From: an uncultured Flavobacteriales bacterium
GTDB taxonomy: Bacteria; Bacteroidota; Bacteroidia; Flavobacteriales_G; Salibacteraceae
NCBI GenBank assembly: GCA_905479105.1
Contig: CAJQLE010000005.1
Span: 1 to 64,000, forward strand
Direction: 5' to 3'
Length of the DNA: 64,000 nucleotides
The translations under genes and the position numbers were made by a program. The first letter of the stretch is position 1. The number at the start of each line of letters is the position of its first letter. Under the pieces are notes generated by a model. The model did not search any database, was not told the DNA's origin, and worked only from the letters and a program-made list of their open reading frames with translations. This document shows, piece by piece, positions 58,532 through 61,370 of this stretch.

Positions 58532-59089
58532 ATGACTAAACACCAACTCAACCCTGACACTTGGATCAACCTTTATGCTGATCAACTTTTAAGCTACGCC
58601 CTTGTTAGAGTGCCAGAGCGAGATGTAGCTAAAGACCTTGTTCAAGACACGTTTTTTTCCGCGCTTAAATCCAAAGAGAACTTTAGAGGCGAGATTTCTG
58701 AAAAAAATTGGCTTTACCTCGTACTCCGAAGTCGAATCTTAGATTATTACAAAAAGCGAAAAGAAGTGCTGGAATCTGATTTCGGAACCGATGATGACGA
58801 TGACGATTCATTCGATAATAAAGGCCATTGGATGGATGGTAAACTCCCCAAAGAATGGTCAACAGACAACATAATTCAGAATAAAGAATTCATGCAAATA
58901 TTTCTACAATGCAAGTCTGCGTTGAAAGAGGTTCAGGCTCAAGTATTCACTATGAAGTATATAGATGGAGAAGAATCTGAAACCATTTGTAAGGAACTTG
59001 AAATATTATCTTCTAACTATTGGGTATTAATCCATAGGGCAAAACTGCAATTGCGTTCTTGCATCGAGAAAAACTGGTTCGATAAATGA
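58532..59089 (+). CDS. RNA polymerase sigma-70 family (ECF) sigma factor
   Basis: DVAKDLVQDTFFSALKSKENFRGE..NWLYLVLRSRILDYYKKRKE; region 4 YIDGEESETICKELEILSSNYWVLIHRAKLQLR. Confidence 0.92.
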   Translation: MTKHQLNPDTWINLYADQLLSYALVRVPERDVAKDLVQDTFFSALKSKENFRGEISEKNWLYLVLRSRILDYYKKRKEVLESDFGTDDDDDDSFDNKGHWMDGKLPKEWSTDNIIQNKEFMQIFLQCKSALKEVQAQVFTMKYIDGEESETICKELEILSSNYWVLIHRAKLQLRSCIEKNWFDK

Positions 59090-59319
59090 TAAACTGTAAA
59101 GAGTCAACGCGACTAACAATTAAGAAAGAAGAGAATAAAATAACTCTAAGAGAAAGAATAGAGCTATCTTTTCACTTAATGATGTGCAAATTTTGCAGTG
59201 CTTTTAATGTTCAAAACTCATGGATAAATGGAGTCTCAAAACATGCAGAGGCTCATGATTCTTTTTCTGAATCTGAAAAGCAAGATCTTGAAGTACGTAT
59301 GAAGGATTCGACTAAATAA
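59086..59319 (+). CDS. Small putative anti-sigma factor (zf-HC2-like)
   Basis: INCKESTRLTIKK..ERIELSFHLMMCKFCSAF (C...HxxxCxxC); ATGA overlap with the sigma gene. Confidence 0.65.
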   Translation: MINCKESTRLTIKKEENKITLRERIELSFHLMMCKFCSAFNVQNSWINGVSKHAEAHDSFSESEKQDLEVRMKDSTK

Positions 59320-59345
59320 TTCGCAACAATTAAAACCATAATAAT

Positions 59346-59750
59346 ATGAAAAACACAAACAAAGGTTTAGGTGCATTAATCACCGGGACATTAATGGCTG
59401 GAGCTCTTTTAGGGACTTCTAATGCTAATGAGTTATTCTCTTATAGTGATCTGGGTTCTGGTTCTGAGCTTAGAGCTGATCTATTGGACGCTTCTAATAC
59501 AGGATTTAAATCTCCAGAAGGTAAATGCGGTGAAGCAAAGGCTGATGAAAAATCAGAATCAAAAGCTGATGATTCTAAAGCTGCTGAGCATAAGTGTGGA
59601 GAAGGAAAGTGTGGCGAAGCGAAAGCTGACATGAAGCCAGCTGATTCTAAGGCTGCTGAACACAAATGCGGTGAAGGTAAAGCTGAAATGAAAATGGAAG
59701 AGAAAGACGCGAAGTCTGACAAAAAAGCGAAGGCAGTAAAGCCTAACTAA
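59346..59750 (+). CDS. Bufferin-like (BufA) secreted RiPP precursor with four KCGE motifs
   Basis: Signal peptide KGLGALITGTLMAGALLGTSNANE; SPEGKCGEAK, AAEHKCGEGKCGEAKAD, AAEHKCGEGKAE; directly upstream of a DUF692 gene. Confidence 0.82.
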   Translation: MKNTNKGLGALITGTLMAGALLGTSNANELFSYSDLGSGSELRADLLDASNTGFKSPEGKCGEAKADEKSESKADDSKAAEHKCGEGKCGEAKADMKPADSKAAEHKCGEGKAEMKMEEKDAKSDKKAKAVKPN

Positions 59751-59763
59751 ATAAATATCGATT

Positions 59764-59799
59764 AAGCCTGACCTAAGCCTAGGTCAGGCTTTTCTTTTT
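59764..59799 (+). terminator. Terminator/attenuator-like hairpin between precursor and MNIO genes
   Basis: Perfect 12-bp stem AAGCCTGACCTA-AGCC-TAGGTCAGGCTT followed by TTCTTTTT. Confidence 0.85.
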
Positions 59800-59800
59800 A

Positions 59801-60640
59801 ATGTCAAAACACGTAGGAATAGGATACCGCAAGGATTTTGGATCAGCTTTTTTAGAAAGTGATGTTCTCGATCCTGCATTTGTGGAAGTAGCGCCAGAAA
59901 ATTGGATAGATATTGGTGGTTATTGGAAAAAAGAGTTTTCTAAAGTAGCTGACAAATATCCAATCTACACACACGGACTTTCGCTTTCGATTGGAAGCCC
60001 AGATCCCATTGATTGGGATTTTCTCAAAAAAATTAAATCCTTCATGCAAGAATGGGACGTCAAAGTCTATTCTGAGCATTTAAGCTACAGCAAGTGCGAC
60101 AACGCGCATATTTACGACCTTCTTCCCATACCATTCCGAGAGGATGCTGTTAAGCATATTTCTAAGCGAATAAAAGAAGTTCAAGACTTTTTAGGGCGTA
60201 AGCTGGTTATTGAAATCGTTTCCTACTACACCCCTGTCGCAGCTGAAATGAGTGAAGTTGAATTCATTAACTCCATACTCAAAGAATCCGATTGTGAATT
60301 GCTCTTTGATATCAACAATGTTTATGTCAATGCATTTAATCACAACTACGATCCAAAACAATTTATTGAGCAACTCGATCTTTCAAGCGTAAAGTACATT
60401 CACATGGCAGGCCATGAAAAAGTGAGTGATGATCTCATCATCGACACTCACGGTCAAGCCATAATTGATCCCGTATATGATTTATTTGAATTCGCTATTT
60501 CAAAATTGGATCAACCAGTTCCAGTTTTGTTAGAGCGCGATTTCAATATTCCTGAGATGGAAGAATTGGCAGCAGAAATGAATCAATTGGAATCAATCTG
60601 TCAAAAACAATGGAACCATGAGCCAATCATTGCACACTGA
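59801..60640 (+). CDS. DUF692 / multinuclear non-heme iron oxidative enzyme (MNIO, BufB-like)
   Basis: GIGYRKDF; EVAPENW; HGLSLSIG; YSEHLSYS; LLFDINNVYVNAFNHNYDP; HMAGHE; DTHGQAI; LLERD. Confidence 0.92.
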   Translation: MSKHVGIGYRKDFGSAFLESDVLDPAFVEVAPENWIDIGGYWKKEFSKVADKYPIYTHGLSLSIGSPDPIDWDFLKKIKSFMQEWDVKVYSEHLSYSKCDNAHIYDLLPIPFREDAVKHISKRIKEVQDFLGRKLVIEIVSYYTPVAAEMSEVEFINSILKESDCELLFDINNVYVNAFNHNYDPKQFIEQLDLSSVKYIHMAGHEKVSDDLIIDTHGQAIIDPVYDLFEFAISKLDQPVPVLLERDFNIPEMEELAAEMNQLESICQKQWNHEPIIAH

Positions 60641-61370
60641 TACCATTGAGCAGCAAAGTTTGTTGGCAAAGTTTTGTCGAGATGGAGTTGAACCTTCACT
60701 AGAAGGAGTTACTGATGGTCGTCTGCACAATTACAGAAGACTAGTGTTTGGAGTAGTTAGAGAGGCTTTGAGCAGCACCTACCCGCTTACTGTAAACCTT
60801 CTCACCAATAAAGAGTGGAGTGTTTTAATCCAAGAATTCTTCGAAAATCATAATTGCCAAGACCCACAAGTTTGGAAAATGCCTCTTGAATTGATCGAAT
60901 TCACAGAAAAGCACCAATCATCATTAACGAAGAAATATCCTCTCTTAATAGAACTTTTAAACTTTGAATGGAAAGAAGTTGAATATTACATGATGCCTGA
61001 TGAGAAGTTCCCCGAAGAAAGAACCTCAGATTTCTTCAGCGATCTTTGGGTTTTTAATCCCGAATCAGAGATTTTAACGCTTTCGTATCCGCTCCATTTA
61101 AAAAACGCACGATTCATTTCTATCAGTGATGAAGGACAATACTTCTGTCTAATTTTCAGGCAACCTAAAACTTTCAAAGTGAAGTTTTTAAACCTCTCAC
61201 CTTTCTTCGCTTGGTTAATTGCTACCATGCAAACTGAGCCCATTTCAGTTGATGAACTTTCACCTGTTATTAAGAAGGAATTTGGCATTACCGATGTCCA
61301 GCAATTCAAACAAAACATTGAGCCTTTCTACAAAAAGCTCTGTCTTGATGGAATGATCCTCTCCAGTTAA
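60618..61370 (+). CDS. DUF2063 domain protein (BufC-like partner)
   Basis: LLAKFCRDGVEP...GRLHNYRRLVFGVVREALSSTYPLTVNLL; 23-nt overlap with the MNIO gene. Confidence 0.85.
   Translation: MSQSLHTDTIEQQSLLAKFCRDGVEPSLEGVTDGRLHNYRRLVFGVVREALSSTYPLTVNLLTNKEWSVLIQEFFENHNCQDPQVWKMPLELIEFTEKHQSSLTKKYPLLIELLNFEWKEVEYYMMPDEKFPEERTSDFFSDLWVFNPESEILTLSYPLHLKNARFISISDEGQYFCLIFRQPKTFKVKFLNLSPFFAWLIATMQTEPISVDELSPVIKKEFGITDVQQFKQNIEPFYKKLCLDGMILSS

What the first reader, a model, noticed from the sequence alone, without database searches (positions are those of the whole stretch)
58532..61370. Bufferin-type RiPP operon: ECF sigma / CxxC anti-sigma / KCGE precursor / DUF692 MNIO / DUF2063
Seen: gene order sigma-antisigma-BufA-BufB-BufC on one strand with ATGA and 23-nt overlaps. 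The precursor has a signal peptide and four cysteines (residues 61, 84, 89, 108), each in a KCGE context. Established: MNIO (DUF692) enzymes with DUF2063 partners modify EGKCG-type cysteines in signal-peptide-bearing bufferins, which are linked to copper protection in Proteobacteria. Inference: this is a Bacteroidota version with a cognate sigma switch and no DoxX-type gene in the immediate cluster. Two of the four sites read EHKCGEG rather than EGKCGEA, a possible new core variant with an added His.
Basis: partly seen in the sequence, partly recalled or inferred. Interest (0 to 1): 0.88.

Follow-up and report, generated by a model that had tools for sequence, protein, structure and literature searches.

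The report
Stress-switched copper-binding peptide operon
A marine Bacteroidota bacterium carries a five-gene operon that most likely makes a secreted, chemically altered metal-trapping peptide under a stress-sensing switch; the kind is known from Proteobacteria, and this is the little-described Bacteroidota branch with its own leader sequence and an extra histidine in some repeats.

Summary
In detail: ECF sigma, 77-aa anti-sigma, secreted KCGE precursor (Cys61/84/89/108), DUF692/MNIO and DUF2063 genes on one strand with 4-nt and 23-nt overlaps. 'Bufferin' is the wrong subfamily: NCBIfam puts precursor repeat and MNIO in HvfA/HvfB (oxazolin, captophorin: 5-thiooxazole copper peptides). The sigma pair is a ZAS-type switch whose Cys4/His30/Cys34/Cys37 sit at the positions of meningococcal MseR. 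Sigma-ZAS-precursor-MNIO-DUF2063(-DoxX) recurs across Bacteroidota, and many of these operons carry TGTMAGG-N15-CGWC before the precursor, matching the published Neisseria sigmaE promoter; the window's own genus lacks it.

EHKCGEG is thus a recurrent lineage variant, not unique to this genome. Chemistry, metal and signal remain inferred. Known kind, lineage variant.

The parts
58532..59089 (+). ECF sigma factor, 185 aa
   Evidence: PF04542/PF08281 above cut-off; TIGR02943 152 bits, just under its 162 cut-off; adjacent to the MNIO cluster in all nine loci of the genus and genus g5 that have the MNIO
59086..59319 (+). soluble zinc-type (ZAS) anti-sigma factor, 77 aa, Cys4/His30/Cys34/Cys37
   Evidence: NF052368 52.9 bits, cut-off 50; residue positions identical to those published for meningococcal MseR
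59346..59750 (+). HvfA/EGKCG-type precursor, 134 aa: signal peptide, leader LFSYSDLGSGSELR, four KCGE sites
   Evidence: NF050137 37.4 bits, cut-off 19.5; leader conserved in relatives
59764..59800 (+). terminator-like hairpin (12-bp stem, T-rich tail) between precursor and MNIO; probable attenuator
   Evidence: 37 of 58 Bacteroidota precursor-MNIO gaps have one, versus 2/29, 0/32, 0/60 and 0/23 in the other gaps and 1/290 shuffles
59801..60640 (+). MNIO (DUF692), HvfB-like, 279 aa
   Evidence: PF05114 E=1.5e-96; HvfB NF003818 380.6 bits, cut-off 360; PDB 3bww E=1.9e-74; N173, D215, H217 invariant in alignment A1
60618..61370 (+). DUF2063/PME1 partner protein, HvfC-like, 250 aa
   Evidence: PF09836 and PF22106 above cut-off; HvfC NF050145 124.5 bits, below its 142 cut-off

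Best explanation
This is a Bacteroidota member of the HvfA/oxazolin (captophorin) RiPP clusters under a sigmaE/MseR-type switch. Proposed working: the anti-sigma holds the sigma in the cytoplasm through a zinc-bound Cys/His site; oxidants or thiol-reactive metal ions disrupt that site and free the sigma (inferred from MseR, HrsE and RsrA); the sigma turns on the operon (supported by promoter conservation in relatives; the promoter in this genome is unknown). The precursor is made first and probably in excess, because a terminator-like hairpin lies between it and the enzyme genes (shown in sequence, effect inferred). The DUF2063 partner binds the leader around LFSYSDLGSGSELR and presents the KCGE repeats to the MNIO, which oxidises up to four cysteines to 5-thiooxazoles, about -4 Da each (inferred from HvfBC and FonBC). 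Sec exports the peptide, which binds Cu(I) or a similar soft metal in the periplasm (inferred).
For: Family models. MNIO conserved with 3bww, an HvfB homologue; the residues matching HvfB N175/D242/H244, essential there, are invariant in 18 relatives (equivalence read from the 3bww alignment). Same cluster in 9 of 9 genus and near-genus loci with an MNIO and, often with DoxX, across Bacteroidota and Ignavibacteriota. Sigma and MNIO distances correlate (Mantel r 0.80, 0 of 2000 permutations), so they are inherited together, though shared organismal descent alone could also give this. TGTMAGG-N15-CGWC lies 62-87 nt before the precursor in 18 of 33 sigma-bearing Bacteroidota loci, 0.3 expected in shuffles, and matches the Neisseria sigmaE consensus GTMAGBWTT-N12/13-CGTCTAAH. 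Published: the H. influenzae operon needs RpoE2 for HOCl induction; EGKCG products carry 5-thiooxazoles and bind Cu.
Against: Nothing was tested biochemically. The window's genus lacks the TGTMAGG/CGWC promoter before both precursor and sigma, and the motif is not enriched in its genome (1 hit; 6 for the reversed control). The HvfC and full-length HvfA models score below cut-off. Only four sites, at the low end of the Bacteroidota range (median 5). No DoxX next door. The divergent TonB receptor resembles ZnuD, so copper is not certain. Oxidative stimuli did not change sigmaE expression in meningococci.
Confidence: 0.77

Rival explanations
1. Same peptide chemistry, but the physiological metal or role is different (zinc, or protection after thiol oxidation rather than copper buffering), co-managed with the divergent ZnuD-like receptor.
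For: Divergent TonB receptor with ZnuD as best solved relative; receptor and small Cys/His protein beside the sigma gene in window, L050, L051 and L057; switch type linked to HOCl and MsrAB in Haemophilus; the sigmaF operon of Caulobacter is induced by Cd and Cr.
Against: The receptor is not next to the cluster in L053-L056, so it is not a fixed part of it; the thiooxazole peptides tested so far generally bind Cu.
Confidence: 0.15
2. A true bufferin (Buf1/DUF2282 or Buf2), as the title says.
For: Same MNIO and DUF2063 gene set; BufB model scores 269.8 bits.
Against: No DUF2282 match; BufB below its 310 cut-off while HvfB is above its own; KCGE repeats; Buf1 loci use NrsF anti-sigmas, here it is a soluble ZAS protein.
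Confidence: 0.03
3. The KCGE protein works as an unmodified thiol or metal buffer and the MNIO acts elsewhere or is decaying.
For: Sister-genus genomes G013, G026 and G031 have KCGEGKCGE secreted or lipoprotein-like proteins and no PF05114 gene, so the repeat can exist without an MNIO.
Against: Those proteins lack the LGSGxELR leader (by eye); here precursor, MNIO and partner are intact, adjacent and conserved; EGKCG sites of oxazolin, fontiphorin and NedA were found modified by their MNIO/partner pairs.
Confidence: 0.05

Closest known systems
HvfABCX / oxazolin cluster of Haemophilus influenzae (PMC13419390) under RpoE2/HrsE (PMC7907618)
   Same: EGKCG-repeat secreted precursor, HvfB-type MNIO, DUF2063 partner; control by an ECF sigma with a small cytoplasmic ZAS anti-sigma
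   Different: There the sigma genes lie apart, near msrAB; here they head the operon. DoxX (HvfX) missing here; four Cys instead of six; His in two repeats; MNIO only about 45-50% identical to Pseudomonadota relatives
Neisseria sigmaE operon NMB2140-2145 with MseR (PMC2893595); gonophorin (PMC12668002)
   Same: Sigma, ZAS anti-sigma, MNIO and DUF2063 genes in one operon; anti-sigma Cys4/His30/Cys34/Cys37 numbering identical; promoter consensus shared with other Bacteroidota operons
   Different: Gene order (sigma pair last in Neisseria, first here); DoxX present there; promoter of the window's own operon not found
Fontiphorin and the captophorin class (PMC12668002); bulbicupramide (PMC12538549)
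   Same: KCG repeats, MNIO plus PME1 partner, 5-thiooxazole product expected
   Different: EGKCG in nearly all repeats and a different leader in the Pseudomonadota relatives sampled here
Bufferins Buf1/Buf2 (PMC12452194)
   Same: Secreted MNIO-modified copper peptide with DUF2063 partner, often DoxX
   Different: DUF2282 or 6/12-Cys precursor; NrsF-type anti-sigma in Buf1 loci

Membership tests
HvfA/oxazolin (captophorin, Lys-Cys group) | secreted precursor with repeated KCGE sites | tested here: met
   NF050137 37.4 bits over 19.5; full-length HvfA model NF050188 41.4 bits, under its 95 cut-off
HvfA/oxazolin (captophorin, Lys-Cys group) | HvfB-type MNIO next to the precursor | tested here: met
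   NF003818 380.6 bits, cut-off 360; gap of 50 nt
HvfA/oxazolin (captophorin, Lys-Cys group) | DUF2063/PME1 partner | tested here: met
   PF09836 and PF22106 above cut-off; the narrower HvfC model is below cut-off
HvfA/oxazolin (captophorin, Lys-Cys group) | DoxX-type HvfX gene (common, not universal) | tested here: not met
   no DoxX adjacent; two elsewhere in the genome
HvfA/oxazolin (captophorin, Lys-Cys group) | 5-thiooxazole on Cys and Cu binding | not testable with these tools
   needs co-expression and MS
Bufferin Buf1/Buf2 | DUF2282 or 6/12-Cys precursor | tested here: not met
   no Pfam match to the precursor; four Cys, all KCGE
Bufferin Buf1/Buf2 | BufB-type MNIO above curated cut-off | tested here: not met
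   NF050167 269.8 bits, cut-off 310
sigmaE/MseR (RsrA-type ZAS) switch | soluble anti-sigma, Cys...H-x3-C-x2-C, encoded just after the sigma gene | tested here: met
   C4, H30, C34, C37 in a 77-aa protein with no hydrophobic membrane segment; ATGA overlap
sigmaE/MseR (RsrA-type ZAS) switch | GTMAG...CGTC promoter before the controlled genes | tested here: not met
   found in 18/33 sigma-bearing Bacteroidota loci but not in the window's genus
sigmaE/MseR (RsrA-type ZAS) switch | release of sigma by oxidant or metal | not testable with these tools
   needs binding and reporter assays

The most novel reading that the evidence does not exclude
The Bacteroidota branch makes a chemically distinct metal site: a His two residues before a thiooxazole in [ED]HKCGEGKCG pairs, giving mixed N/S coordination with its own metal preference. 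A dedicated leader/partner pair reads these repeats, and an attenuator hairpin sets precursor well above enzyme.
Probability: 0.25. Interest if true: 0.6.

Novelty: new variant of a known kind. Interest (0 to 1): 0.42.

Why it matters
The papers read describe EGKCG/oxazolin clusters as mostly from Pseudomonadota. The comparison shows a broad, self-consistent Bacteroidota branch with the redox-type sigma switch built into the operon and, in many species, the same promoter as the Neisseria sigmaE regulon. That makes the link between stress sensing and thiooxazole metallophores testable outside pathogens. The His repeat gives a defined comparison (EHKCG versus EGKCG) for how these peptides choose their metal. 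The MNIO-free KCGE proteins in a sister genus warn that KCGE repeats alone do not prove MNIO modification.

Tried and rejected
Bufferin membership: rejected on curated cut-offs. Conserved promoter upstream of the sigma gene: dyad counts no better than shuffles, so no promoter call is made for the window; the TTTCTTTGA-like stretch before the sigma start in several genus members is left as unproven. TGTMAGG/CGWC in the own genome: not enriched. DUF2063 protein by sequence against PDB: no hit, Pfam used instead. Papers on ZAS sigma factors with DUF692 in Bacteroidetes: none found. The large precursor searches gave 195/664 versus 0/892 His sites, but they are seeded by words of each query and so biased; the MNIO-seeded count (38/292 versus 0/218) is the one relied on. 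Structure prediction was not run: homology already decides the folds.

Full report
What is there. The matches are far above chance. The genome (2.79 Mb, 99.85% complete) has one MNIO gene and one KCGE-repeat protein, both here.

Which subfamily. Curated NCBIfam models place the MNIO in the HvfB family (380.6 bits, cut-off 360) and below the bufferin BufB cut-off (269.8 against 310); the precursor matches the HvfA KCGExKCG repeat model (37.4 against 19.5); the partner matches HvfC at 124.5 bits, below its 142 cut-off; the full-length HvfA model is also below cut-off. Pfam gives MNIO, DUF2063 and NGO1945_C above cut-off and no DUF2282. So this belongs with oxazolin/captophorin, not with bufferins. 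UniRef already names a Salibacter relative 'HvfA family' (P0196). The modification of this class was first reported as oxazolone/thioamide and has been reassigned to 5-thiooxazole.

The switch. The anti-sigma is 77 aa and soluble, with Cys4, His30, Cys34 and Cys37, the same positions as in meningococcal MseR, where Cys4, Cys34 and Cys37 are needed for full activity. In Neisseria the sigmaE gene and the anti-sigma MseR are co-transcribed with NMB2140-2143 in one autoregulated operon; NMB2140 is the DoxX gene, and the gonococcal counterpart NGO1945 is the DUF2063 partner with a solved structure, 3DEE. In H. influenzae the four hvf genes need RpoE2 for induction by HOCl.

Relatives. Of 61 related genomes, 23 have an MNIO hit. 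All eight other loci of the genus or genus g5 repeat sigma, anti-sigma, precursor, MNIO, DUF2063; the remaining genera of the family have precursor, MNIO, DUF2063 without the sigma pair. A scan of genome contigs gave 80 named loci: Bacteroidota, Ignavibacteriota, a few Chlamydiota and Verrucomicrobiota, then Pseudomonadota. Sigma-ZAS-precursor-MNIO-DUF2063, often followed by DoxX, is the common Bacteroidota layout. In the MNIO tree all Bacteroidota-type rows lie on one side of a branch (support 94, not starred), and the window's genus groups with Ignavibacteriota (88) rather than with the rest of its family, which hints at transfer; this is weak support from a quick tree. The sigma tree gives nearly the same neighbourhood, with one further Bacteroidota row between them.

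Promoter. Counting spaced word pairs upstream of the precursor in sigma-bearing Bacteroidota loci brought out TGTAA-N17-CGTC. As TGTMAGG-N13..17-CGWC with up to one mismatch it is found in 18 of 33 loci (13 exact) against 0.3 in shuffles, nearly always with spacer 15 and 62-87 nt before the start codon; 4 of 24 loci without an adjacent sigma also have it; none is found upstream of the sigma gene. It agrees with the published Neisseria sigmaE consensus GTMAGBWTT-N12/13-CGTCTAAH. The motif was derived here before that passage was read. The window's genus lacks it, and its own promoter was not found.

Hairpin. Between the precursor stop and the MNIO start the window has a 12-bp stem with a T-rich tail (59764-59791). 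Of 58 Bacteroidota precursor-MNIO gaps, 37 have such a hairpin, including all nine of the genus group; other gaps of the same operons have 2/29, 0/32, 0/60 and 0/23; Pseudomonadota 5/27; mononucleotide shuffles 1/290. The gaps compared differ in length, and the MNIO-DUF2063 and sigma/anti-sigma junctions are mostly overlaps, so the anti-sigma to precursor gap (median 84 nt, 2/29) is the fair comparison. The likely meaning is partial termination, hence more precursor than enzyme; this is inference.

Leader and core. Bacteroidota precursors carry, just after the signal peptide, a motif of the form LF.Y..LG[ST]G..[LV]R (49 of 58, most of the rest with MG for LG); Pseudomonadota precursors have none of it (0 of 27) but mostly a F...[DE]L..GY motif at the same place. 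The two can be lined up as F...[DE]L..G, so they are probably homologous; that alignment is by eye. His at -2 of KCG occurs at 38 of 292 sites in 22 of 55 Bacteroidota precursors and at 0 of 218 in Pseudomonadota. A second sample agrees (195/664 versus 0/892) but is biased by word seeding; in it 168 of 189 His sites are the first Cys of a HKCGEGKC pair. Sequences within each group are related, so no p-value is offered. FonBC accepted every non-Pro variant tried at repeat position 2, so EHKCG is expected to be a substrate.

A counter-example to KCGE alone. Genomes G013 (single contig), G026 and G031 of a sister genus have no PF05114 gene but have KCGEGKCGE secreted or lipoprotein-like proteins, without the leader. 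The repeat is therefore not by itself proof of MNIO modification; the leader plus adjacent enzyme pair is the better sign.

Shown and inferred. Shown: gene content, family assignment, ZAS residues, conservation, promoter in relatives, hairpin, leader and His statistics. Inferred: thiooxazole formation, metal, export, redox sensing, attenuation. The verdict is a known kind of system in a lineage variant that the papers found here do not describe.

Noticed in passing
L171, L172, L173 (G013), L174 (G026), L175 (G031), L176 (G059): KCGEGKCGE-repeat secreted or lipoprotein-like proteins in genomes with no detectable MNIO gene, without the LGSGxELR leader; three separate genes in the single-contig genome G013.
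   Followed up: partly
55194-58408, minus strand: Divergent set: lipoprotein (187 aa), TonB-dependent receptor with ZnuD as best solved relative, and a 103-aa Cys/His-rich secreted protein; also beside the sigma gene in L050, L051 and L057. Possible metal uptake set.
   Followed up: partly
54751-55137, plus strand: Small secreted LTxxQ (Spy/CpxP-like, by eye) protein; similar proteins sit just upstream of the sigma gene in other genus members (L052, L053, L055).
   Followed up: no
region before the sigma start in L050-L056: Recurrent TTC.T.CTTTGA-like stretch 5-8 nt before the sigma ATG, directly after a terminator in some loci; could be a promoter of a nearly leaderless mRNA.
   Followed up: no
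L065, L118: Loci with a different ECF sigma gene (no ZAS partner seen) before precursor-MNIO-DUF2063-DoxX: a possible swap of the switch.
   Followed up: no
59346-59750: The identical precursor is recorded on 108 contigs in the protein collection (P0121), so the organism seems common in metagenomes.
   Followed up: no
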